This document shows positions 1,854 through 36,882 of a stretch of 42,966 nt of DNA, one piece after another. The notes under the pieces were generated by a model. That model saw only the letters and a list, made by a program, of their open reading frames with translations, searched no databases and had not been told where the DNA came from. A program made the translations under genes and the position numbers. Position 1 is the stretch's first letter. Each line of letters begins with the position of its first letter. This DNA is from a virus, in IMG/VR virus record IMGVR_UViG_3300028597_000003, positions 1-42,966 of that record; one strand, given 5' to 3'.

Positions 1854-3548
1854 ATGGCAACCGACAGCCCACGCAAGCTGGCCGAGAAACGGCTGTCAGC
1901 GCTGAAGAACGAGCGTTCCTCTTGGGACACCAACGCCAAGGAAATCTCCGACTTCATCCTGCCCATGCGCTCCCGGGTGATGTGCGACGACACCAACCGT
2001 GGCGACCGCCGCAATAACAAGATCATCAACAACCGGGCCACGATGGCCAGCCGCACGATGGCCGCCGGCATGATGAGCGGCATCACCTCGCCAGCGCGCC
2101 CATGGTTCAACCTGCAGCCTGTGGCTCGGGCAATTATGGAGTTCGGCCCGGTCAAGTCGTGGTTCTATGAGTGCACCCAGCGCATGCGCGACGTCTTCCT
2201 GCGCTCGAACCTGTACCAGGTCCTGCCGACCTGCTACCAGGAGATGGGCACCTTCGGTACCGGCTGCATGTGGGTCGATGAGCACCCAGAGACGGTGATC
2301 CGCTGCGAGGCCTTCACTTGGGGTGAGTACTTCATCTCGAACGGCGCAGACGGCAAGGCATCTGCCATCTACCGCGAATTCAAGTGGACGGTGAACCAGC
2401 TGGTGGAGAAGTTCGGCCTTGACGCACTGAGCCCGGCATCGAAGGCCTTGTACGAGAACAACAACGGCGACCAGTTCATCAGCTGCGCCCAGCGGGTTGA
2501 GCTGAACATGAACGCCAACCCGGACCGCGCCGGCAGCCGTAATCTGCCGTACAGCTCGTTGGTCTGGGAGACTGGCGCCCCGGGCGACATGGTGCTGGAG
2601 GATCGCGGTTACCACGAATTCCCAGTCATGGCTGTGCGCTGGGAGGCCATGCCAGGTGATGCCTACGGCACCGGACCTGGTCGTGTCTGCCTTGGAGATG
2701 TGAAAGCCCTGCAGCTGTACGAGCGCCAGGCAGCCCGCATGACCGAGACAGGGGCCAACCCGCCACTGCAGGCGCCGGCAGAGCTGCGTGGCCAGCCCAG
2801 CAGCACCATCCCTGGCGGCGTGACCTACGTCCCCATGGTGGGCGGCCAGAACCAGATGGCGCCGATCTACCAGCCCAATGCGGCCTGGCTGTCGCCGATC
2901 CAGGCGAAGATCCAGGAGCACGAAGGGCGGATCAACGAAGCGTTCTTCGTTGACCTGTTCCTGATGGTCAGCCAGCTCGACACGGTGCGCACCGCCACCG
3001 AGATCGCGGCCCGCAAGGAAGAGAAGATGCTGATGCTGGGTCCAGTGCTCGAGCGTATTAACGACGAACTGCTTGACCCGCTGATCGACCGTACCTTCAA
3101 CATCATGCTGCGCCAGTCCATGCCGATCTGGGCCGGCATCATCGATGGCGACCCGCTGCTGCCACCGCCACCCCAAGAGCTGATCGAAGCCAACAGCGAG
3201 ATCCAGGCCGAGTACGTATCGATCCTGGCCCAGGCACAGAAGTCCCAGAATGTGCTGGGCCTGGAGCGGTTCGCAACTCTGGCCGGCAACCTATCCGGCG
3301 CCTTCCCAGAGGTGCTGGACAAGGTCAACTCCGACCAGCTCATAGAGGAATACGCCGACGCTATTGGCGTGGTACCCACCGTGGTTCGTGGCGCCGATGA
3401 GGTTGCCGCTATCCGCGAGCAGCGCGCCCAGCAGCAACAGGCCCAGCAAGCCCAGCAGGCCATGGGCGCCGCCATCCAAGGCGCCAAGCTCCTGTCCGAA
3501 ACCGAAGTCACCCCGGACAACGTCCTGGGCCAGATGCTGGGGGCATAA
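1854..3548 (+). CDS. Portal protein (T7-type head-to-tail connector)
   Basis: The 564-residue protein should form the dodecameric portal ring at the packaging vertex. The N-terminus, with SSWDTNAKEISDFILP, NNRATMASRTMAAGMMSGIT and SPARPWFNL, is characteristic of the 'bacteriophage head-to-tail connecting protein' family of podoviruses. The C-terminal third is helical. It ends in a Gln/Ala-rich tract (QQQQAQQAQQAMGAA), as expected for the barrel/crown region. Length fits the family. The gene starts 2 bases after the preceding ORF and stops 1 base before the next, as in a tight late operon. Confidence 0.93.
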   Translation: MATDSPRKLAEKRLSALKNERSSWDTNAKEISDFILPMRSRVMCDDTNRGDRRNNKIINNRATMASRTMAAGMMSGITSPARPWFNLQPVARAIMEFGPVKSWFYECTQRMRDVFLRSNLYQVLPTCYQEMGTFGTGCMWVDEHPETVIRCEAFTWGEYFISNGADGKASAIYREFKWTVNQLVEKFGLDALSPASKALYENNNGDQFISCAQRVELNMNANPDRAGSRNLPYSSLVWETGAPGDMVLEDRGYHEFPVMAVRWEAMPGDAYGTGPGRVCLGDVKALQLYERQAARMTETGANPPLQAPAELRGQPSSTIPGGVTYVPMVGGQNQMAPIYQPNAAWLSPIQAKIQEHEGRINEAFFVDLFLMVSQLDTVRTATEIAARKEEKMLMLGPVLERINDELLDPLIDRTFNIMLRQSMPIWAGIIDGDPLLPPPPQELIEANSEIQAEYVSILAQAQKSQNVLGLERFATLAGNLSGAFPEVLDKVNSDQLIEEYADAIGVVPTVVRGADEVAAIREQRAQQQQAQQAQQAMGAAIQGAKLLSETEVTPDNVLGQMLGA

Positions 3549-5602: not shown

Positions 5603-6049
5603 ATGATCACCGACAAGCTGAACCTGTTCAGCGGTTTGACTGGTCAGGCAGTCACCGCGACGGCGGCATCTACCGACGTTATCGACCTGGGCCCGCTGAC
5701 GCACGGCAATACCCGGCGCGACATCGGCGCCGGCGAGCCGCTGTACCTGGTTGTCGCGGTACTGGCCGCTGCTACTGCGGCTGGTGCTGCCACCGTGAAC
5801 TTCCAACTGCAGACCAGCGACGACAACGCGACCTGGGTCACCCTGTTTGACTCTGGTGCCACCGCGTTGGCTGACATGGCCGCCGGCAAGCGTCCGGTTG
5901 CTGTGGCGGTCCCGCGCGGCGTTCGCCGTTACCTCCGCGTCAACTACACCGTTGGCACCGGCCCACTCACCGCTGGCACGTTCTGGGCTGGCCTGGTCAA
6001 AGACGTCCAGGACACCGCGACCTACGCCAGCGGCTTCGTGATCGCGTAA
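5603..6049 (+). CDS. Capsid cement/decoration protein (Bbp16-like)
   Basis: The 148-residue protein is rich in Ala, Thr, Val and Gly and predicted to be mostly beta. Features include TATAASTDVIDLGPL near the N-terminus and VNFQLQTSDDNATWVTL in the middle. Together with its place immediately after the capsid gene, this matches the Bbp16-type cement proteins that bind the outside of BPP-1-like capsids. A clear SD (GGAGAAT) precedes ATG 5603. The assignment comes from context and overall pattern and has not been tested by structure. Confidence 0.75.
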   Translation: MITDKLNLFSGLTGQAVTATAASTDVIDLGPLTHGNTRRDIGAGEPLYLVVAVLAAATAAGAATVNFQLQTSDDNATWVTLFDSGATALADMAAGKRPVAVAVPRGVRRYLRVNYTVGTGPLTAGTFWAGLVKDVQDTATYASGFVIA

Positions 6050-6556: not shown

Positions 6557-7192
6557 ATGAGTTCGGTAATCGACATCTGCAACATGGCGATCTTCCGCAT
6601 CGGCAACGGTACCCGTATTGATGACCTGGAAGAGAACAGCCAGCCGGCCCGGATCTGCAAGCAGTTCTACGATAGCAGCCGCGACTTTGTGCTGCGTGCC
6701 GATTGCGACTGGGGCTTCGCCACAGCCTTTGCCCAGCTCGCTGAGGTGGCCGACAACCCGAACCCCGATTTTCAGTACGCCTACGCCGTGCCGAATGACT
6801 GCATGCGCGTGCGCCGAATCGTCAACCCTGGCTGGCCGCAGGGCGCTATCCCAGTTGGTTACGAGTGCTACATGCCCGAACTGCCGCGGATCCCATTCCG
6901 CGTGGTCAACGGATCGAGCCAGCGGCTTATCAGCACCAGCGTGAGCCCGGCCACCCTGGAATATACGCTCAAGGTCACTTCGCCAGAGCTGTTCGACCCA
7001 ATCTTCGTGTCGGCTTTGGCCTGGTACCTGGCCGGTGAGATCGCCGGGCCACTGGCCAAGGATGCCGGTATCGCCAGCGCCTGCTACGCCCAGTACAAGG
7101 CCACGGTGCTGGAGGCCGCTGCCACCGCGCTCAATGAAGGCACCACCCAGTACCAGCGCGAATCCACCTTCATCACGGGACGCGGGGCATGA
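6557..7192 (+). CDS. Tail tubular protein A-like (adaptor/gatekeeper)
   Basis: The 211-residue protein opens MSSVIDICNMAIFRIGNGTR and contains ICKQFYDSSRDFVLRADCDWGFA. This is the signature of the T7 gp11-type tail tubular protein A family that docks under the portal. GGAG lies 10 bases before ATG 6557. It overlaps the following tail gene by 4 bases (ATGA), so the two are translationally coupled. Length agrees with the family. Confidence 0.9.
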   Translation: MSSVIDICNMAIFRIGNGTRIDDLEENSQPARICKQFYDSSRDFVLRADCDWGFATAFAQLAEVADNPNPDFQYAYAVPNDCMRVRRIVNPGWPQGAIPVGYECYMPELPRIPFRVVNGSSQRLISTSVSPATLEYTLKVTSPELFDPIFVSALAWYLAGEIAGPLAKDAGIASACYAQYKATVLEAAATALNEGTTQYQRESTFITGRGA

Positions 7193-9513
7193 CTGAAGTT
7201 ATCCAGCCGTCCTTCAGCGCTGGCGAGGTATCGCCAGCCACCTACGCCAGGGTTGACCTGGGGCGCTATTACACCGCGCTCAAGACCTGCCGCAACTACC
7301 AGGTGCTGCCGGAGGGTGGGGCACAGAACCGCTCGGGAACGCGCTACATCGTCGAGACCAAGAACAGCGCCGCCAAGTCGCGGCTGATCCCGTTCCAGTT
7401 CTCGACCGAGCAGACCTACATCCTGGAGTTCGGCAACCTGTATATCCGCTTCATCAGCATGGGCGGCCAGGTTGTGAGCGGCGGGCTGCCCTATGAGATC
7501 GTTTCGCCGTATACCGCGGCGCAGCTTGCGGCCCTCAAGTTCACCCAGTCGGCTGATGTGCTGACCATCGTTCACCCTGACCATCCGCCTCGCGAGCTTT
7601 CGCGCCTGGGCCCGACCAACTGGACCCTGACGGCCATCGTGTTCGAGCCGAGCATTGCTGCTCCAACCGGGCTGACAGCCTCTGCGCGCTCTGGCGGCTC
7701 TGGCGACACCACCGAGTATCAGTACAAGGTGACCGCCGTCAGCAGCATTTCCGAGGGCTCCGTCGAGTCGAACGCCAGCAACACCGCCACGGTGAACAGC
7801 TTCGACAATAAGCCGGGGGCAAGCCTGAGCTGGACCGCGTCGGCCGGGGCCGACCACTACAACATCTATAAGAACAAGTCTTCGGGTGTGTTCGGCTTCA
7901 TCGGCCAGGCCACTGGCACGACCTTCACCGACATCAACATCACCCCCGAAACTGACAACACGGTACCCATCGCGTACAACCCGTTCGCCGATGGCAATAA
8001 CCCTTCAGTGGTGGGCTACTACCAGCAGCGCATGGTGTTCGCGGCCAGCAAGGCCAACCCTCAAACCGTGTGGATGTCGCGCACCGGGGACTTCCACAAC
8101 TTCGGCTATTCCGACCCGAACAAGGACGACGACGGCATTGAGTTCGTCATCGCCAGCCGGCAGGTCAACCAGATCCGTCACCTGGTGTCGTTGCGCGAAC
8201 TGCTGGCCATGACCTCCGGCGCCGAGATCGCCATCACCGGGTCTACCGATTCAGGGGTCACAGCTGCCAACGTCTCGGCGATCGAGCAGAGCTATTTCGG
8301 CACCAGCGACGTGCCGCCGGCGATCTACGCCAACACGGCGCTGTACATCCAGGCCAGGGGCGGCAAGCTGTCGACGCTGGCCTACAACTACGTCTCGGAC
8401 GGCTTCCAGCCCCAGGACGTCAGCGTGCTGTCGTCGCACCTACTGCGTGGCTTCACCATCCAGGACATGGCCTTCACCCTGCAGCCCAACGGCATTCTGT
8501 GGATGGCTCGCAACGACGGCATGCTGCTGGGGTTCACCTTCCTGCCCGACCAGCAGGTTTACGCCTGGCACTGGCACGACACCGACGGTCAGGTTGAGTC
8601 GGTGGCTTCGGTGCCGGAGAACGACGAGGACGCGTTGTACCTAATCGTCAAGCGCACCATCAACGGCGTGACAAAGCGCTATATCGAGCGCATGGCCACC
8701 AGGCAGCTGACCAAGTTCGGCAGCGGCGATTACTGGTTCGACCGGGCTTTCTTCGTTGATTGCGGACTGACCTACGACGGGCGCCGCACCGGAACCGCCG
8801 TACTGAGTGGTGGCACCACCTGGCAATACCCGGACCTGCTGACGCTTACCGTGTCCGCCTCCACCTTCGACGCAGGCATGGTGGGCCGTAGCGTGATCAT
8901 GTATGGCGGCGGCAACGAATACGCCATTGGCGATGTGCTGACCGTGAAAATCACCGCGTTCGTCTCGGCCACGGTCGTCACCGTGGAGCCTCAAACCGTC
9001 GTACCTGGATCGCTGCGAGGTGTATCCGCCACCCGTTGGGGTATTGCAGCCACAACCGTTAGCGGGCTTGGCCACCTTGAAGGGAAGACGGTCAGCATTC
9101 TGGGTGATGGCAATGTCGTGCCCCAGCAAGTCGTCACCGGCGGCGCCATTACGCTGGACAGTCCAACCCTGATTGCACACATCGGCCTGCCTATCACCGC
9201 CGACTTCGAAACCCTGGACCTCACACTGCAGAACAACCAGGCGTTCTTGGGCAGCAAGAAGCGCATCAACCAGGTGGTAGTTATCTGCCAGGAAAGCCGC
9301 GGGATCTTCGCCGGTCCCGATGCCGACCACCTGGACGAGTTCAAGCAGCGCGCCGACGAAAACTACGGCGAGCCAATCGAACTGCTGACCGGCCGGGCCG
9401 AGATGGAGATCCAGTGCCAGTGGGATAACTACGGGCGCCTGTTTATCCGCCAGTCCGACCCGTTGCCGCTCACCATTCTGGGGGTCATGCCCAATGTCCA
9501 GTCCGGTGGCTGA
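7189..9513 (+). CDS. Tail tubular protein B-like / tail nozzle protein
   Basis: The 774-residue protein opens MTEVIQPSFSAGEVSPATYARVDLGRY. This 'sFsaGElsP' start is typical of the podovirus tail tube/nozzle and P22-like stabilisation protein group. Residues about 157-262 look like an inserted Ig/Fn3-type module: APTGLTASARSGG, then YQYKVTAVSSISEGS, then WTASAGADHYNIYKN. This could be a surface carbohydrate-binding or stabilising domain. The C-terminal half is beta-rich. It overlaps the neighbours on both sides by a few bases, and its position after TTP-A supports the call. Confidence 0.88.
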   Translation: MTEVIQPSFSAGEVSPATYARVDLGRYYTALKTCRNYQVLPEGGAQNRSGTRYIVETKNSAAKSRLIPFQFSTEQTYILEFGNLYIRFISMGGQVVSGGLPYEIVSPYTAAQLAALKFTQSADVLTIVHPDHPPRELSRLGPTNWTLTAIVFEPSIAAPTGLTASARSGGSGDTTEYQYKVTAVSSISEGSVESNASNTATVNSFDNKPGASLSWTASAGADHYNIYKNKSSGVFGFIGQATGTTFTDINITPETDNTVPIAYNPFADGNNPSVVGYYQQRMVFAASKANPQTVWMSRTGDFHNFGYSDPNKDDDGIEFVIASRQVNQIRHLVSLRELLAMTSGAEIAITGSTDSGVTAANVSAIEQSYFGTSDVPPAIYANTALYIQARGGKLSTLAYNYVSDGFQPQDVSVLSSHLLRGFTIQDMAFTLQPNGILWMARNDGMLLGFTFLPDQQVYAWHWHDTDGQVESVASVPENDEDALYLIVKRTINGVTKRYIERMATRQLTKFGSGDYWFDRAFFVDCGLTYDGRRTGTAVLSGGTTWQYPDLLTLTVSASTFDAGMVGRSVIMYGGGNEYAIGDVLTVKITAFVSATVVTVEPQTVVPGSLRGVSATRWGIAATTVSGLGHLEGKTVSILGDGNVVPQQVVTGGAITLDSPTLIAHIGLPITADFETLDLTLQNNQAFLGSKKRINQVVVICQESRGIFAGPDADHLDEFKQRADENYGEPIELLTGRAEMEIQCQWDNYGRLFIRQSDPLPLTILGVMPNVQSGG

Positions 9514-20903: not shown

Positions 20904-21190
20904 ATGACCACTCCACTGGTCATCCCGGCATCACTGCTTAATTTTTGCTACAGCAAATATCCGCCATGTCTACAGGCCCCATAAATCCTGGGCCTTCGCA
21001 TTTAATCGACCCGATCCATCATCGGTGCAACAGAAAACCTCCTAACTACCGTATCGCCTGATGTTCCGGGGCTTTCTGCTTGTTTCTGGGGCATTTCTCT
21101 ATCTCTGGTTGTTGCCGCTTTTTTCCGGTTCTTGCTGGTTTTGCTACATCGGTTGCTACAATGTAGCAACTCAACTCAGCCGTGTAGCAA
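20904..21190. promoter_or_regulatory. Integrase upstream region: inverted repeats and TTGCTACA octamers (possible attP arms/operator)
   Basis: The gap 20834-21194 has no gene. It contains a 7-bp inverted repeat ATGACCA/TGGTCAT (20904-20923) and a TTTGCT-AC-AGCAAA palindrome (20944-20957). The octamer TTGCTACA occurs at 20945, 21141 and 21153, and its complement TGTAGCAA at 21162 and 21183. The copies at 21153-21169 form a perfect 17-bp palindrome that overlaps a TACAAT -10 element (21157-21162) for int. These are plausible arm-type integrase sites or an int operator. The attP core itself was not identified. Confidence 0.6.
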
Positions 21191-21194
21191 TTTC

Positions 21195-22334
21195 ATGGGA
21201 ACCATCACGCAGCGCAAGCGCAAGGACGGGTCTTCTGGCTTCACTGCCCAGATCCGGATCACGAAGGAAGGGAAGGTAGTTTATCAGGAAAGCCAGACAT
21301 TCGACCGGAAGGCCACGGCTCAGGCCTGGATCAGGAAGCGTGAAGCTGAACTGTACGAACCGGGTGCCGTCGAGAAGGCGAACCGCAAGGGCGTGACGAT
21401 CAAGCAGATGATCGACAAGTACCTGGTGGAGTACGAGAAGCTGCGACCGCTGGGGAAGACGAAGCGGGCGACCCTCAAGGCAATTGGCGAAAGCTGGCTT
21501 GGCGAGGTGGAAGACCAGCAGCTGACCAGCCAGAAGCTGGTTGACTACGCCATGGACCGAATCGAAAAAGACGGCATCCAGCCGCAGACAGTCGGTAACG
21601 ATCTTGCGCACCTGGGCGCCGTCCTGTCCGTGGCCAGGCCAGCTTGGGGGTATGAAGTCGATGCTCAGGCTATGCCTGATGCACGGCGCGTATTAAAGAA
21701 GCTTGGCGCTGTAACCAAAAGCGTGGAGCGCAGCCGCCGGCCGACACGTGATGAGCTGGAACGCATCATCAAGTACTTCCAGAAGGTGCGCGATGCCAGG
21801 CGCCAAGAGATCGACATGGTGCGGGTGGTGGTCTTCGCGCTGTTCTCTACTCGTCGCCAGGAAGAGATCACGCGGATTCGCTGGGATGCGCTCAATGACC
21901 AGGAGCAGTCGGCGTTGATCACCGACATGAAAAACCCGGGCCAAAAGTATGGCAACGATGTGTGGTGCCACATGCCCGACGAGGCCTGGCGCATCCTGCA
22001 GTCAATGCCCAAAGTGGCTGACGAGGTGTTCCCGTACAACTCCAGGTCGATATCGGCCTCGTTCACCAGAGCATGCCACTTCTTGCAGATTGATGACCTG
22101 CACTTTCACGACCTGCGCCACGATGGCGTAAGCCGATTATTTGAAAAGGGGTGGGATATTCCGCGCGTGGCCAGCGTTTCGGGCCACCGGGATTGGAACT
22201 CGATGCGGCGCTATACGCACCTGCGGGGGAAGGGAGACCCCTATGAGGGGTGGGAGATGCTGGAAGAAGTTATAGCGGGGCCGGTGATTGAGGCCTCTAA
22301 ACGACAATTGAGAAGTAAACAGAACGATTTATAA
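21195..22334 (+). CDS. int: Tyrosine-type site-specific integrase
   Basis: The 379-residue protein inserts and excises the prophage. ATG 21195 (MGTITQRKRKDGSSGFTAQI) starts with the usual N-terminal arm-binding three-strand domain. The longer frame from 21132 runs through the octamer repeats and is rejected. A SAM-like core-binding domain covers about residues 75-170. The catalytic domain shows R in FSTRRQEEI, K in ITDMKNPGQK, H-x-x-R in HFHDLRHDG, H in SGHRDWNSM and the nucleophile Y in MRRYTH. It lies next to a repeat cluster suited to attP and converges with the PrtN-like gene. Confidence 0.95.
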   Translation: MGTITQRKRKDGSSGFTAQIRITKEGKVVYQESQTFDRKATAQAWIRKREAELYEPGAVEKANRKGVTIKQMIDKYLVEYEKLRPLGKTKRATLKAIGESWLGEVEDQQLTSQKLVDYAMDRIEKDGIQPQTVGNDLAHLGAVLSVARPAWGYEVDAQAMPDARRVLKKLGAVTKSVERSRRPTRDELERIIKYFQKVRDARRQEIDMVRVVVFALFSTRRQEEITRIRWDALNDQEQSALITDMKNPGQKYGNDVWCHMPDEAWRILQSMPKVADEVFPYNSRSISASFTRACHFLQIDDLHFHDLRHDGVSRLFEKGWDIPRVASVSGHRDWNSMRRYTHLRGKGDPYEGWEMLEEVIAGPVIEASKRQLRSKQNDL

Positions 22335-27557: not shown

Positions 27558-28712
27558 TCAGCGTTTCGGGTAGGTCTTGTTCAGTTCGCCATTCACTACG
27601 TGGCCGCGGCGCAGCACCAAGTTGGCCAGGGCGGCCCGGTCTTTCTGGCTGTGGCTGGCCTGCCGGAGGAGGCCGAAATAGCTGTTGGCTGTCTCGCGCA
27701 GGTCATCTGCCGGCGCCGAAGCCGTTCGCTTCATTGCCTGGGCCACCGATTTCTTGCGGGTGGTGCGCCGCCAGGGCTTGATCACATGCCCGACGAAGTC
27801 CACGCCACGGTCAATCGGCTGCAAGATGGACTTCGAAGGGTTGAGCCTGACGCCAAGACTGGGCAGGAAGTCTTCGATCCGGCGCAACCATTCGTTCAAC
27901 TGCTGCGGTGACTCATGCAGCAACACGAAGTCGTCGACGTAGCGGATGTAGTGCTTGGCCTTGAGCGTGTGCTTGCAGAACTTGTCCAGGGCGTCGAGGT
28001 AGACGTTGGCGAAGAACTGCGACGACAAGTTGCCGATTGGTAGACCTAGGTAAGCCGGCTGCGCGGTCAGGCGCTTGTGCTGCGGAACCCTGTTGAACAG
28101 GTGCGCCGGGCTGCGCTCGCTGTAATTCTCGCGCGGGTCGTGCATCAGCACATGCATGGCCAGCTGCCGGAACCACGGGTCATCAATGCTGTCAGCCAGC
28201 TGCTGGCCCAGCACGCGCTTGTCGATCGACACGAAGAAGTTGGCCAGGTCGCATTTCAGGTAGAAGCCTGGGCGTGACCAGTTCTGCGTTTGGCTGCGGA
28301 TCTTCGCCTCGAGGCGCTTACCGGCGTACAGTGTGCCGCGCCCGGGGATACAGGCGCAGCTGTCCGCAATGAAGCTGCTTTCGATCCGTGGACCGATGCG
28401 GTTGTAGAGCAGGTGGTGCACGATGCGGTCCCGGAAGTCTGCGGCCCATACCTCGCGGGCCTTTGGCCGGGTAACCACAAAGCAGATGGAACGACCTGGC
28501 CGGTATCGGCCGGTAACCAGGTCGTGATGCAGTGCCGTCAGGTTCTGCTCCAGGTTCATCTCGAATGCCAGCGCGCTGTTGCTGTTGCGCTTGGAGCGTC
28601 GGCAATCGTAGTAGGCCTGGACCAGTTCGCTGAACGGGTATGGGGTCGAATCTGCGGACGGGCCGGACGCGAAGCTCGTTGTTCTTGTCGTTGTTGTTCT
28701 GATTGCCATCAT
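27558..28712 (-). CDS. DGR-type reverse transcriptase
   Basis: The 384-residue protein copies the template repeat with adenine-specific errors. Motif A is YLKCDLANFFVSID (about residues 151-164). Motif B is GLPIGNLSSQFFANVYLD (223-240), whose IGxxxSQ is the hallmark of DGR enzymes as opposed to QGxxxSP of group II introns. Motif C is YIRYVDDFVLLH (256-266) with the YVDD active site. The N-terminal RT0-like region, SELVQAYYDCRRSKRNSNSA, matches Bordetella Brt in style. The first possible starts, two ATG codons at 28712 and 28709, lie inside the template repeat. A stop is in frame three codons upstream and no later ATG/GTG/TTG precedes the conserved region. Confidence 0.95.
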   Translation of the reverse strand: MMAIRTTTTRTTSFASGPSADSTPYPFSELVQAYYDCRRSKRNSNSALAFEMNLEQNLTALHHDLVTGRYRPGRSICFVVTRPKAREVWAADFRDRIVHHLLYNRIGPRIESSFIADSCACIPGRGTLYAGKRLEAKIRSQTQNWSRPGFYLKCDLANFFVSIDKRVLGQQLADSIDDPWFRQLAMHVLMHDPRENYSERSPAHLFNRVPQHKRLTAQPAYLGLPIGNLSSQFFANVYLDALDKFCKHTLKAKHYIRYVDDFVLLHESPQQLNEWLRRIEDFLPSLGVRLNPSKSILQPIDRGVDFVGHVIKPWRRTTRKKSVAQAMKRTASAPADDLRETANSYFGLLRQASHSQKDRAALANLVLRRGHVVNGELNKTYPKR

Positions 28713-28752
28713 CGAAGTTCATGTTGAATGCGTTGTTGGCTGAGCGCTGCGA
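28648..28752 (-). other. DGR template repeat (TR)
   Basis: The roughly 105-bp minus-strand repeat matches the ends of the two variable-protein genes. Read in the variable-protein frame it codes SQRSANNAFNMNFDDGNQNN and onwards to ELRVRPVRR, i.e. AAC/AAT/GAT-rich codons. Of 28 template adenines in the 60-base core (28679-28738), 19 differ in VR1 and 16 in VR2. No other base differs across the 27-base GC-rich end (28652-28678), the core and the 11 shared bases beyond it. The 163 bases between TR and avd (28753-28915) hold no ORF that I support and probably belong to the DGR RNA. Confidence 0.97.
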
Positions 28753-28915
28753 CCTGTCGTGCTATCTACGTCGCCCCGGCGATTGCTCATCGGGGTAACT
28801 ACGCTGGACCTACGCGGACTCTTTAGACCGGCGGTATCCATGGGTGCGCATGGCGGTGCTCACAGAGCAGCGGCACGACCAGATTCAATTCGCACAGGCC
28901 TGAAAGCCGTAACCT

Positions 28916-29272
28916 TTAGGCAGCGGGCGCGGATGGGGTGTTGCGTTTCCAGGCGTTGGCCTGCTTTCCAATGGAGGTGGTTACCTCCATGGTGGCGGCA
29001 TGCTGGGCAACGCTGATAAAGCGGCTGTCCTTGAACAACCGCATCAGCAGCTCGATCACCTGGACCTTTTCAACCAGCTGGGTCAGGTGCGGACGCTTGT
29101 CGTGGGTGGCGTTTGCCCGGGCAATGAGCATCAGCACATCGATGCACTCGTCGATCACCCGGCGCCCGAGCGACTGTTTCAATTCGCGCGGGATATTGCG
29201 GGTGAGGTTCGTGGCCATCTGGAGCAAGCCCAGTGAGGCCTTGTAGATCGAAAGCTCGGTGTGCATTGCCAT
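28916..29272 (-). CDS. avd: Avd, accessory variability determinant of the DGR
   Basis: The 118-residue, four-helix-type basic protein (MAMHTELSIYKASLGLLQMA, LTRNIPRELKQSLGRRVIDE, CIDVLMLIARAN, LVEKVQVIELLMRLFKD) shows the pattern of Avd proteins. These form pentameric barrels, bind the RT and are needed for mutagenic cDNA synthesis. The start is ATG 29272, because GGAGGGG (29279-29285) is 6 bases before it. The upstream ATG 29287 overlaps that ribosome site. It lies between VP1 and TR-RT exactly as in the Bordetella mtd-avd-TR-brt order. Confidence 0.92.
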   Translation of the reverse strand: MAMHTELSIYKASLGLLQMATNLTRNIPRELKQSLGRRVIDECIDVLMLIARANATHDKRPHLTQLVEKVQVIELLMRLFKDSRFISVAQHAATMEVTTSIGKQANAWKRNTPSAPAA

Positions 29273-29292
29273 TGGATTCCCCTCCATTGGCC

Positions 29293-29312
29293 ACCGCCCG
29301 TTGCCGGGCGGT
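29293..29312 (-). other. Hairpin/cruciform downstream of VR1
   Basis: A perfect 8-bp stem ACCGCCCG/CGGGCGGT with a 4-nt loop (GCAA on the coding strand) begins 28 bases beyond the VR1 end. DGR target sites commonly carry such a short-stem, four-base-loop structure that aids retrohoming. Its spacing here is longer than the few bases known for BPP-1. Confidence 0.6.
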
Positions 29313-29324
29313 TAAATGAATGAA

Positions 29325-29930
29325 TTACTGAATAACTTCGCTGCGGACGGGCCGGACGCGAAGCTCGAGGACCTTGCCGAAGCCGTCCTGAGTGCCAACA
29401 CCGAAGTGCATGAGGAAAGCGAGGTTGGCTGAGCGCTGCGAGGATGACCAGTACCAGGCGCGCTGGAAGGCTTCAGGAGCGCCGGCACGGAAGACCTCAT
29501 GCACGGTCTGCCCTGGACTTTCCTCGGTGTAGAGCAGTCCGACCGGCTCGCTGTTCGGGTTGTCGCCATCCCGGTTCCAGCAGTAGTTGGCCTCGGAGGT
29601 CGGCTTGAAGTGGCGATACTGAAGCTCCTGAACATCACGGGCCGGGATAGCCCAGTCGCTGTACCCCCCAATCTCCAGAGCCAGGACCTGCTTGGCCAGC
29701 TCGCTGCCAGCAGCGGCCATGGCCTCGGTGTTCGCACGGCTGTTGGTGTGGCTGTCGGCGCCTTGGATCTTCTTGCCGAATTCGCCCCAGCGGCCTTCCA
29801 GTTCATGCGCGGCGCCGGCGGTAATCCACAGGTGGCGCTCGCCGGTTTCAGGATCGCGGGTAATGCCGGTGACGAAGCCGCCGCCGTAGGCCTGGCCAAT
29901 GGCTGGGATTGCTTGTTCAACTGCGTTCAT
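29325..29930 (-). CDS. DGR variable protein 1 (C-type lectin-like fold)
   Basis: The 201-residue protein is a diversified binding protein. It shows GGGFVTGITRDPETGERHLW, GGYSDWAIPARDVQELQYRH and WYWSSSQRSANLAF, ending ELRVRPVR. This pattern (DUF1566/formylglycine-enzyme-like C-type lectin) is the usual DGR display scaffold. The variable segment at the C-terminus reads L-AF-LMH-F-GVG-TQDGFGKVL against template N-AF-NMN-F-DDG-NQNNNDKNN. It starts at ATG 29930 with AAGGAG 7 bases upstream. There is no signal peptide or membrane segment, so display on the virion or in the cytosol is more likely than secretion. Confidence 0.93.
   Translation of the reverse strand: MNAVEQAIPAIGQAYGGGFVTGITRDPETGERHLWITAGAAHELEGRWGEFGKKIQGADSHTNSRANTEAMAAAGSELAKQVLALEIGGYSDWAIPARDVQELQYRHFKPTSEANYCWNRDGDNPNSEPVGLLYTEESPGQTVHEVFRAGAPEAFQRAWYWSSSQRSANLAFLMHFGVGTQDGFGKVLELRVRPVRSEVIQ
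29341..29441 (-). other. DGR variable repeat 1 (VR1)
   Basis: This 101-bp repeat aligns without gaps to TR 28652-28752. It has 19 differences, all at positions where the TR coding strand is A. Changes include A to T, C and G, as DGR mutagenesis gives. The 27-base GC-rich end (29341-29367) is invariant and would serve as the initiation-of-homology site. Confidence 0.97.
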
Positions 29931-29956
29931 GTGCTGCTCCTTATTGCGCAGGCAAC

Positions 29957-29977
29957 AAAAAGGGCGCCGATGCGCCC
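29957..29977 (-). terminator. Hairpin with T run between the two variable-protein genes
   Basis: On the minus strand, GGGCGC-ATCG-GCGCCC (29962-29977) is followed by five T, then the SD of VP1. It looks like an intrinsic terminator that would attenuate VP1-avd-RT relative to VP2. It also stands 31 bases beyond the VR2 end, about where the VR1 hairpin stands, so it may double as the DGR target hairpin. Confidence 0.6.
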
Positions 29978-29999
29978 GTTTGGTCGAATGAATGAAGAA

Positions 30000-30596
30000 T
30001 CAAATGAAGAATCTGCGGACGGGCCGGACGCGAAGCTCGTCGTCCTTGCCGTAGTAGCTCTGAAGGCCACCACCGAAGGTCAGGTAGAACGCGAGGTTGG
30101 CTGAGCGCTGCGTGCTGCTCCAGTAGTAGCCCTCGGTGATCAGTCCATGCACCCAGGCCTGGTAGAGCTGTGCTGCCGCTGGCAAGTCGAAGTCGGTGTG
30201 ACCGTCAGCTTGGTGCGCCCGAGCCGCTTCGGCAGCAGGATGGCCGCCTTCCTCGATCAGGATGTCGGTGTTGGCCTTGCCGTCATGACGACTGGTCGCC
30301 TTCGATTCCTTGTTGCGGCCGCCCCATTCATGCTCGCCCACATCTTCATGGGCGAAGATCAGGTAGTGGGCCGGCACATGGCCGATGGCCGGAACGAAGC
30401 CGCCATTGATCCCGCCATGGCCTGGCCAGGGCTGGCCGATAGCGGGAATATTCAACGGTTCCGGCAGGATTCGTGCTGGTTGCTGCACCGGCGCAATCTG
30501 ACTGAGAACGGATGCCAGGGCTAGCTGGGCCACGGTAGCGGCTGGCAACTTGATCGTTGCATCGCCAACAGTCAGGGTGATCTTGTCTTGTTTCAT
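30000..30596 (-). CDS. DGR variable protein 2 (C-type lectin-like fold)
   Basis: The 198-residue protein is a second diversified target sharing the C-terminal scaffold of VP1 (YYWSSTQRSANLAF, then ELRVRPVRR). Its N-terminus is different: MKQDKITLTVGDATIKLPAA forms a small beta segment, followed by a helical stretch and a Pro-rich linker (about residues 37-55). Its variable positions read L-AF-YLT-F-GGG-LQSYYGKDD. AAGGA lies 9-13 bases before ATG 30596. The distinct N-terminus suggests a different docking partner from VP1. It is the first DGR gene after the FtsK-gamma gene (26-base gap), so it is probably expressed from PL. Confidence 0.92.
   Translation of the reverse strand: MKQDKITLTVGDATIKLPAATVAQLALASVLSQIAPVQQPARILPEPLNIPAIGQPWPGHGGINGGFVPAIGHVPAHYLIFAHEDVGEHEWGGRNKESKATSRHDGKANTDILIEEGGHPAAEAARAHQADGHTDFDLPAAAQLYQAWVHGLITEGYYWSSTQRSANLAFYLTFGGGLQSYYGKDDELRVRPVRRFFI
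30009..30112 (-). other. DGR variable repeat 2 (VR2)
   Basis: This 104-bp repeat aligns gap-free to TR 28648-28751 with 16 differences, all at template adenines. It shares 4 more bases with TR at the GC-rich end than VR1 does. Seven of the changed positions carry the same base in VR1 and VR2, as expected from independent random substitution of the same adenines plus selection or shared descent. Confidence 0.97.
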
Positions 30597-35873: not shown

Positions 35874-36104
35874 TCAAGGATTTAGCCAGTTACTACCGTA
35901 AGGTTGGACTGGCTGAGGCTTGCCCTCGATGGAGGCTCGAATTCTCTTCCCCTCACTCTCAATCGTATCGACTATCAGGTGGTTGTCGGTTGATCGGTCA
36001 ATGCTTTTTAGGCTTTTGCCTATCCAATAGGTGCAGCCAATCAAGGTCACGACAACTGATGAGAACCCAATGACAACCACCAATTTCAACGACATGTTCT
36101 TCAT
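35874..36104 (-). CDS. Small lipoprotein/membrane protein co-expressed with the repressor
   Basis: The 76-residue protein reads MKNMSLKLVVVIGFSSVVVT, then LIGCTYWIGKSLKSIDRSTD. A basic start, hydrophobic core and LIGC lipobox point to a lipoprotein, or else a single TM anchor. ATG 36104 follows a GGAGGGG site and overlaps the repressor stop (ATGA), so it must be made from the same message in the lysogen. A terminator follows. By analogy with rex-type genes next to cI it is a candidate for superinfection exclusion or lysogenic conversion; this is inference. Confidence 0.7.
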   Translation of the reverse strand: MKNMSLKLVVVIGFSSVVVTLIGCTYWIGKSLKSIDRSTDNHLIVDTIESEGKRIRASIEGKPQPVQPYGSNWLNP

Positions 36105-36772
36105 ATGCCACCACCCCTCCACACGACTCGGCCTATGATTTCGACCGCTTGCATTCCTTTGTCGCTGATCGGCATGTCCGGATACCGCGTCTTGTCCTGG
36201 TTGTCCGAGCGAATTATCCAGCCGCCGGCCATATCGCGGATCAGCCGTTTGATGATGACCTCGTTATCAGGATCATACATAGCGTGCATCTTGCCGTTTG
36301 CCGGCTCGATCTTCGATACGTCCACAAGCAACACTTCGCCATCACTCAGGGTGGGCCAGTTGCTGTCGCCGTGGTTGTACATCACCCGCAGATTCTCTTC
36401 GCGCAACGACATGCCTTTCAGCCATTCGCGTTTGAAGGCCAGGCCTCCAGTAATCTCAACGTGGTCGTTCAAGTAGCCACTACCCGATGAGCCACGGGCA
36501 CTGTATTGCGGGATCAAAGCGTAATCCTTCTCGCTGGGTGAGCCCGGCAATACCTCCGCTTCACGTTCTGGCGGCTTGCCGATCGCAAGCCACTCCGCGC
36601 GGAAACCAGTGGCTTCGGCCAGGGCATAGAGGTTCTCAGGCTTCAGGCTCTTGCTCTCGCCTGAAATCCACTGAGTAACAGCTGACGGCGCAACGCCGCA
36701 TGCACTTGCTATCTCGCCTTTTTTCCTGCCGCTCAGGGCTATCGCCCTTGCGATTCTTACGTGTCTTTCCAT
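36101..36772 (-). CDS. CI-type prophage repressor (HTH + S24 peptidase)
   Basis: The 223-residue protein keeps the prophage silent. The N-terminal HTH is seen in GRKKGEIASACGVAPSAVTQ, then WISGESKSLKPENL. The C-terminal S24 domain has the catalytic Ser in HGDSNWPTLSDGEVL and Lys in EVIIKRLIRD. RecA-stimulated self-cleavage is expected, although the linker reads SARGSSGSG and shows no canonical Ala-Gly. ATG 36772 was chosen because upstream starts would translate the operators. There is no clear SD, so a leaderless or weakly initiated message is possible. Operators on both sides of the gene are like those of lambda. Confidence 0.92.
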   Translation of the reverse strand: MERHVRIARAIALSGRKKGEIASACGVAPSAVTQWISGESKSLKPENLYALAEATGFRAEWLAIGKPPEREAEVLPGSPSEKDYALIPQYSARGSSGSGYLNDHVEITGGLAFKREWLKGMSLREENLRVMYNHGDSNWPTLSDGEVLLVDVSKIEPANGKMHAMYDPDNEVIIKRLIRDMAGGWIIRSDNQDKTRYPDMPISDKGMQAVEIIGRVVWRGGGI

Positions 36773-36782
36773 GGGCAATACG

Positions 36783-36855
36783 TTAAGCGAACTGAATTTA
36801 AGCATGCAGTATGCTGAACTAGTCGCTTGACCTCCGAAATTAAGCATGCTGAAAT
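36783..36855. promoter_or_regulatory. PR promoter and right operator cluster (OR)
   Basis: Plus-strand promoter TTGACC (36827-36832), 17 bases, TGAAAT (36850-36855) drives cro. Operators: TTAAGCATGCTGAA at 36840-36853 over the -10, TGCAGTATGCTGAA at 36805-36818 and TTAAGCGAACTGAA at 36783-36796. A further overlapping half-match begins at 36798. PR and PL share the same -35 hexamer. The divergent repressor promoter must lie in the same interval. Confidence 0.8.
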
Positions 36856-36882
36856 TCACGCATTCCGACCGAGGAACCCGCG

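What the first reader, a model, noticed from the sequence alone, without database searches (positions are those of the whole stretch)
27558..30596. A complete two-target diversity-generating retroelement in a temperate Pseudomonas-type podophage
Seen directly: RT with YVDD and IGxxxSQ, Avd, one TR and two VRs at the 3' ends of two C-type-lectin-like genes. The three repeats align gap-free. VR1 has 19 and VR2 16 differences from TR, and every one of the 35 is at a template adenine (28 available in the 60-base core). Thirteen codons vary, mostly AAC/AAT/GAC/GAT, which cannot mutate to stops at A. It is therefore an active or recently active DGR with paired targets fed by a single template.
Basis: partly seen in the sequence, partly recalled or inferred. 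Interest (0 to 1): 0.92.

Follow-up and report, generated by a model that had tools for sequence, protein, structure and literature searches.

The report
Two-target phage DGR with 5' RNA scaffold
A temperate Pseudomonas-type phage carries a gene-mutating retroelement that rewrites two lectin-like proteins from one RNA template; two-target elements were already known, but here a conserved folded RNA whose role I could not find described (Rfam RT-15) turns out to be the template's 5' scaffold, clamped to the template's far end by a long-range helix.

Summary
In detail: RT, Avd, one TR, two VRs, and 35 of 35 TR/VR mismatches at template adenines (chance about 3e-18). The cassette is ordinary in outline: at least 70 of 80 fetched IMG/VR relatives show two or three VRs, and two-VR DGRs in Pseudomonas were in print in 2012. 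Near-identical relatives show recent activity (L075/L076: 8/2750 differences outside, 0/100 in TR, 31/58 at VR adenine sites, 1/142 at other VR sites).

The 163 nt between Avd and TR is Rfam RT-15 (RF03018). Its 3' end lies within 2 nt of the TR start in 47/47 relatives, and all 26 above-threshold RT-15 hits in 299 Pseudomonas genomes adjoin this DGR. An unpaired stretch of RT-15 pairs with the TR 3' end (helix P3) with strong covariation. TR is thus a loop clamped at both ends, and it also encodes the RT start. In BPP-1 the structured RNA lies 3' of TR instead.

The targets are about 200-aa C-type-lectin-fold proteins encoded in the early/lysogeny region, not the tail operon; homologues occur in phages without a DGR RT (D3 orf68). 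Virion or intracellular function is undecided. RecT is not a conserved partner (5/36).

The parts
27558..28712 (-). DGR reverse transcriptase (384 aa); its start codon (ATG 28712 or 28709) lies inside TR
   Evidence: PF00078 E 7.9e-16, phrog_1423 1.7e-116; stop just upstream of the in-frame ATGs; PDB sequence match to the reverse transcriptase of 8ub7
28648..28752 (-). Template repeat TR (105 nt, 33 adenines)
   Evidence: A-only mismatches to VR1 and VR2
28750..28932 (-). RT-15 RNA (RF03018), structured 5' part of the template RNA, ending at the TR start
   Evidence: cmscan 154.8 bits, cut-off 82; same position in 47/47 relatives
28880..28888 (-). Helix P3, 5' strand (TTGAATCTG), unpaired in the Rfam model
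   Evidence: covariation and consensus fold
28646..28654 (-). Helix P3, 3' strand (CAGATTCGA): last bases of TR and the bases after it, inside RT coding
   Evidence: covariation and consensus fold
28873..28879 (-). Outer stem P2 of RT-15, 5' strand (GTCGTGC), continuous with P3; partner 28756-28762 (GCACGAC)
   Evidence: Rfam structure line and fold
28756..28762 (-). Outer stem P2 of RT-15, 3' strand, 3 nt before TR
28916..29287 (-). Avd, accessory variability determinant (123 aa)
   Evidence: PF22296, phrog_3206
29325..29930 (-). Target T1 (201 aa), C-type-lectin-like fold
   Evidence: Lcl_C E 1.6e-5, below the Pfam cut-off; model pLDDT 95.4, best PDB match 8q4e
29341..29441 (-). VR1, 19 differences from TR, all at A
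29293..29312 (-). Hairpin after VR1: ACCGCCCG[GCAA]CGGGCGGT
30000..30596 (-). Target T2 (198 aa), with an N-terminal beta-beta-alpha extension
   Evidence: Lcl_C E 3.1e-4, below the Pfam cut-off; model pLDDT 83; phrog_4245 shared with T1
30009..30112 (-). VR2, 16 differences from TR, all at A
29962..29977 (-). Hairpin after VR2: GGGCGC[ATCG]GCGCCC, followed by a run of T

Best explanation
A working or recently working DGR of a 5'-scaffold kind. (1) The minus-strand order T2-T1-Avd-TR-RT encodes two targets, Avd and RT (order shown; co-transcription inferred). (2) The template RNA is RT-15, then TR, then the first codons of RT. RT-15 folds beside TR, and its conserved unpaired stretch pairs with the TR 3' end (helix P3), continuous with RT-15's outer stem P2, so TR is a loop of about 100 nt held at both ends (shown by covariation; not probed chemically). 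(3) RT with Avd binds this scaffold, starts cDNA on the P3 side and stops at P2, so that the cDNA spans TR (inferred; the coincidence of the RT-15 end with the TR start fits a stop there). (4) Errors arise opposite adenines (shown as outcome). (5) The cDNA replaces VR1 or VR2, guided by the shared GC-rich 3' block and the hairpin after each VR (block and hairpins shown; step inferred from BPP-1). (6) Two hypervariable lectin-fold proteins are made from the early/lysogeny region (location shown); their ligand, and whether they enter the virion, are unknown.
For: A-only mismatches 35/35. A-restricted VR divergence with constant TR in near-identical relatives. RT-15 in 49/50 viral and 30/30 genome relatives, ending within 2 nt of TR in 47/47; 26/26 RT-15 hits over the cut-off in 299 Pseudomonas genomes adjoin this RT, 4 weaker hits do not. 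P3: core pair standard in 100/106 distinct sequences with five pair types, 50 expected by shuffling; on the RT tree 17 changes on each side but only 19 changes of pair state; predicted without constraint on 101 sequences, covarying pairs vanish on permutation. Hairpins of 6 bp or more after 92/156 VRs, against 12% at random positions.
Against: No experiment. Strand and start point of cDNA synthesis are not shown. Several P3 pairs never vary and one inner position is often unpaired. The independent-pairs sign test reaches only p about 0.016 in one coding of the trait and not 0.05 in two others, for lack of independent pairs. Hairpin loops in the window do not fit the GRNA consensus of PMC3240598, and VR2's stem is only 6 bp.
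Confidence: 0.8

Rival explanations
1. RT-15 is only a leader or regulatory element (for example controlling avd or RT expression); cDNA is primed, as in BPP-1, from a spacer 3' of TR that here lies within the RT gene.
For: In BPP-1 an adenine in the 3' spacer primes cDNA (PMC12875486). TR overlaps the RT gene, so a hidden 3' element is possible.
Against: Only about 10-33 nt separate TR from the conserved RT domain in this clade, against 136 nt or more in most other DGRs compared. RT-15 abuts TR to within 2 nt and P3 joins it to the TR 3' end. Synonymous constraint in the RT 5' coding region was not tested.
Confidence: 0.15
2. T1 and T2 are virion adhesins (tail or decoration proteins) and the DGR changes host range, as Mtd does in BPP-1.
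For: C-type-lectin-like fold as in known DGR targets; similar domains occur at the C-terminus of long phage proteins, one named tail fibre, and phrog_4245 is matched only at its C-terminus. Roux et al. 2021 annotate most viral targets of clades 1, 4 and 6 as tail proteins.
Against: About 200 aa with no tail domain found; encoded away from and opposite to the structural genes, with integrase downstream in most relatives. The same cassette kind is in Cruim01, listed as a siphovirus (PMC11256456), and in this podophage-like genome. Homologues in phages without this RT: D3 orf68, the first annotated gene after cI, and Aurca01.
Confidence: 0.4
3. The cassette is a decayed remnant whose VRs are fossils.
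For: Some relatives are damaged: L008 lacks Avd and RT-15, L024, L062 and L063 have altered TRs.
Against: Intact RT and Avd frames; no mismatch at a non-adenine in either VR; relatives diverge almost only at VR-A sites.
Confidence: 0.05

Closest known systems
Bordetella phage BPP-1 DGR (mtd-avd-TR-brt; Rfam Phage_DGR RF03022)
   Same: RT (about 32% identity), Avd, A-to-N mutagenesis, GC-rich TR/VR 3' block, lectin-fold target, hairpin after VR
   Different: BPP-1 has one target, no gap between avd and TR, and the structured spacer 3' of TR; here two small targets, 163 nt of RT-15 5' of TR, almost no spacer, TR containing the RT start, and P3
RT-15 clade cassettes in Pseudomonas and Burkholderiales phages (Magia, Cruim01, LPPA56, QDWS)
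   Same: RT-15, TR, two or more lectin-fold targets, early/lysogeny location
   Different: Different phage backgrounds; target identity 30-86%; Magia has three detected VRs
DiGReF group 3 and multi-VR DGRs (PMC3521204; includes Pseudomonas fluorescens WH6)
   Same: TR overlapping the RT gene; two VRs fed by one TR
   Different: RNA structure and long-range helix not described there, in the passages read
Retron msr-msd with a1/a2 pairing (from general knowledge)
   Same: 5' structured RNA, template, a helix joining the 5' part to the template's 3' end, RT gene downstream
   Different: RT, Avd, A-mutagenesis and VRs are those of a DGR; branched priming not shown; analogy only

Membership tests
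Diversity-generating retroelement | RT of the DGR type ([I/V/L]GxxxSQ, YxDD) | tested here: met
   LPIGNLSSQ and YVDD in the translation; phrog_1423; closest PDB match by sequence is the 8ub7 reverse transcriptase
Diversity-generating retroelement | TR and VR differing at template adenines only | tested here: met
   35/35
Diversity-generating retroelement | Avd or equivalent accessory protein | tested here: met
   PF22296, phrog_3206
Diversity-generating retroelement | VR at the 3' end of a C-type-lectin-fold gene | tested here: met
   T2 is less certain in the VR region
Diversity-generating retroelement | GC-rich 3' block shared by TR and VR, and a hairpin downstream of VR | tested here: met
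   Block; hairpins at 29293-29312 and 29962-29977; loops differ from the GRNA consensus
Diversity-generating retroelement | Mutagenic retrohoming demonstrated | not testable with these tools
   Only indirect evidence from relatives
BPP-1-like 3'-spacer DGR (Rfam Phage_DGR) | Structured spacer RNA between TR and RT | tested here: not met
   No Phage_DGR match in the window; TR overlaps the RT start
Rfam RT-15 RNA | Covariance-model score over the curated cut-off | tested here: met
   154.8 bits against 82, full length
Retron | Branching G and 2'-5' linked msDNA | not testable with these tools
   Only the layout (helix between the 5' domain and the template 3' end) is similar; not filed as a retron

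The most novel reading that the evidence does not exclude
DGRs come in two mirror-image kinds. In this kind cDNA synthesis is started and bounded by a 5' scaffold (RT-15) through helix P3, retron-like, rather than by a 3' spacer; and the diversified proteins are early, non-virion phage factors, for example for superinfection control or anti-defence, rather than tail adhesins.
Probability: 0.3. Interest if true: 0.85.

Novelty: new variant of a known kind. Interest (0 to 1): 0.6.

Why it matters
It assigns a role to an Rfam RNA family for which I found no described function, and suggests that the DGR template RNA has a second layout, with the scaffold upstream and a long-range clamp on the template's far end. 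That makes priming and termination of DGR cDNA testable in a second system. If the targets are not virion proteins, DGRs in temperate phages would diversify something other than host range. The RT-15 link may already be made in Weinberg et al. 2017, which was not available here.

Tried and rejected
RecT-coupled homing (prompted by RecT and exonuclease genes upstream in the window): RecT in only 5 of 36 relatives, so not a conserved partner; other annealing-protein families were not searched. A third VR, or a VR in a tail fibre gene: none in the window, though about 8 relatives have an extra one (L010, L027, L028, L033, L054, L069, L071, L073). Solved relatives of Avd by sequence: none. Literature: no held paper mentions RT-15 RNA, RF03018 or RF03022; Weinberg 2017 and Wu 2018 are not held. 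The first automatic choice of the P3 5' strand picked wrong sites in many rows; the second still did in a few, and it was redone with a stricter anchor before the tree count. Considered and not tested: whether RT-15 and Phage_DGR are circular permutations of one fold; synonymous constraint in the RT 5' end.
Full report
The window is a virus record of 42,966 bases. PHROGs matches give a temperate podophage-like genome: terminase, head-tail adaptor, major head, tail and internal virion proteins on the plus strand (1-20 kb), integrase at 21132-22334, CI-like repressor at 36101-36859 minus. The DGR lies on the minus strand between the last two, downstream of RecT-like, RecE-like and FtsK-gamma genes and upstream of a methyltransferase.

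Observation. VR1 has 19 and VR2 16 differences from TR, gap-free, all at TR adenines, a chance of about 3.5e-18. Thirteen and fourteen codons differ. The finding is confirmed.

How common it is. The RT protein retrieved 80 viral loci and 80 bacterial-genome loci, the latter Pseudomonas and many Burkholderiales, with scattered others. A scan for A-restricted repeats in the viral loci found a TR and at least two VRs in at least 70, extra VRs in several, and none or one in a few fragments or damaged copies. DiGReF (PMC3521204) already listed two-VR DGRs including Pseudomonas fluorescens WH6, and a class in which TR overlaps the RT gene; another survey found multiple VRs in 28.6% (PMC6642488). So the two-target DGR itself is an ordinary member of a known kind.

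Activity. Nearly identical relatives differ mostly at VR positions that are adenine in TR: L075/L076 8/2750 outside, 0/100 TR, 31/58 VR-A, 1/142 VR-nonA; L044/L053 25/2748, 0/101, 35/63, 0/138; L045/L048 differ only at one VR-A site. This supports recent activity of the cassette type; it is not proof for this copy.

RT-15. Between Avd and TR lies Rfam RT-15, 154.8 bits. It is in 49 of 50 viral records and 30 of 30 genomes tested; the exception, L008, also shows no Avd match. Its 3' end is within 2 nt of the TR start in all 47 records with a detected TR. Searching RT-15 itself in 299 Pseudomonas genomes gave 26 hits over the cut-off, all 26 adjoining this RT and Avd (Avd partly aligned in one), while the four weaker hits had no DGR genes near. 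RT-15 is therefore best read as the 5' part of this DGR's template RNA.

Helix P3. The conserved unpaired stretch of RT-15 (UUGAAUCUG) is complementary to the TR 3' end and the next bases (CAG|AUUCGA). In 106 distinct sequences the most variable core pair is standard in 100, with five pair types, against 50 on average and at most 65 in 1000 shuffles; sliding the register lowers total pairing from 554 to 411 or less (a few rows there are wrongly anchored). With corrected anchors, on an RT tree of 142 rows, it is standard in 137, with 17 changes on each side but only 19 changes of pair state, so the sides change together. RNAalifold without constraint predicts P3 on 101 dereplicated sequences, directly continuous with RT-15's outer stem; permuting the 3' segments removes the two covarying pairs (0.95 and 0.84 to 0-0.04) while the invariant pairs stay. 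The window sequence alone also folds so. TR is then a loop of about 100 nt with both ends at one junction.

Overlap with RT. In the window a stop codon lies just upstream of the two in-frame ATGs at 28712 and 28709, both inside TR, with no other usual start before the conserved domain. TR thus doubles as the RT 5' coding end. In L047, L056 and L059-L066 (except L061 and L062) the first ATG is just after TR, so P3 is conserved whether or not its 3' strand is coding.

Comparison. BPP-1 has no gap between bbp7 (avd) and TR, and a 144-nt spacer (Rfam Phage_DGR) between TR and brt; that spacer recruits bRT-Avd and primes cDNA from an internal adenine (PMC12875486). VP585, BalMu-1, Lagaffe, Bise, ACA1, phiARM81mr and YPCBV-1 share the 3' layout, with about 8-35 nt before TR; BalMu-1 has RT-14 abutting the TR 3' end. 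LPPA56, QDWS, Magia and Cruim01 share the window's layout (Cruim01's RT-15 is from its deposited annotation). Bacteroides F4 is intermediate (about 129 nt before TR, 52 after) with no Rfam match.

Targets. T1 is modelled well (pLDDT 95.4), with the Lcl C-terminal domain (8q4e) as best solved match and C-type lectins among the next. T2 shares the family, is less sure in the VR region, and has a beta-beta-alpha extension. A short target paired with an extended one recurs in many relatives. Neither shows a tail domain in the searches made. All 36 relatives checked have an integrase, by my reading of the coordinates downstream of the DGR in about 34. T1 homologues occur in phages without a listed DGR RT, such as D3, where orf68 follows cI. 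A virion role is neither shown nor excluded.

Novelty. The DGR is known in kind; the 5'-scaffold template RNA with P3 is, to my knowledge, an undescribed variant, with the caveat that Weinberg et al. 2017 and Wu et al. 2018 could not be read.

Noticed in passing
L024, L062, L063 (TR), compared with L028, L054, L059: TR itself carries mostly A-restricted changes (13/13, 11/12 and 18/21 at reference adenines), as if mutated cDNA had homed into the template.
   Followed up: partly
L168 (Aurca01) 6784-6887 and 7472-7575: Aurca01 keeps both targets with VR-like ends differing from Cruim01's TR almost only at A, but has no annotated Avd or RT nearby: a lost DGR, or diversification in trans by a co-resident phage.
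   Followed up: partly
L008 around 2640-3400: A cassette with no Avd and no RT-15 match and a VR-like sequence read into the RT frame, as after recombination between VR and TR.
   Followed up: no
L200 (BalMu-1) 2295-2438: Rfam RT-14 abuts the 3' end of this phage's TR (2178-2297), so RT-14 looks like a 3' DGR scaffold, the mirror of RT-15.
   Followed up: partly
L202 (Bacteroides phage F4) 2213-2501: About 129 nt between Avd and TR and 52 nt from TR to the RT match, no Rfam hit: perhaps another 5'-scaffold DGR.
   Followed up: no
L046 TR (about 5908-6023): TR with an in-frame internal duplication (TTTTRTTTTRTT in the RT frame).
   Followed up: no
window 29962-29977: The hairpin after VR2 is followed by TTTTT, so it may serve both as homing hairpin and as terminator between T2 and T1.
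   Followed up: no
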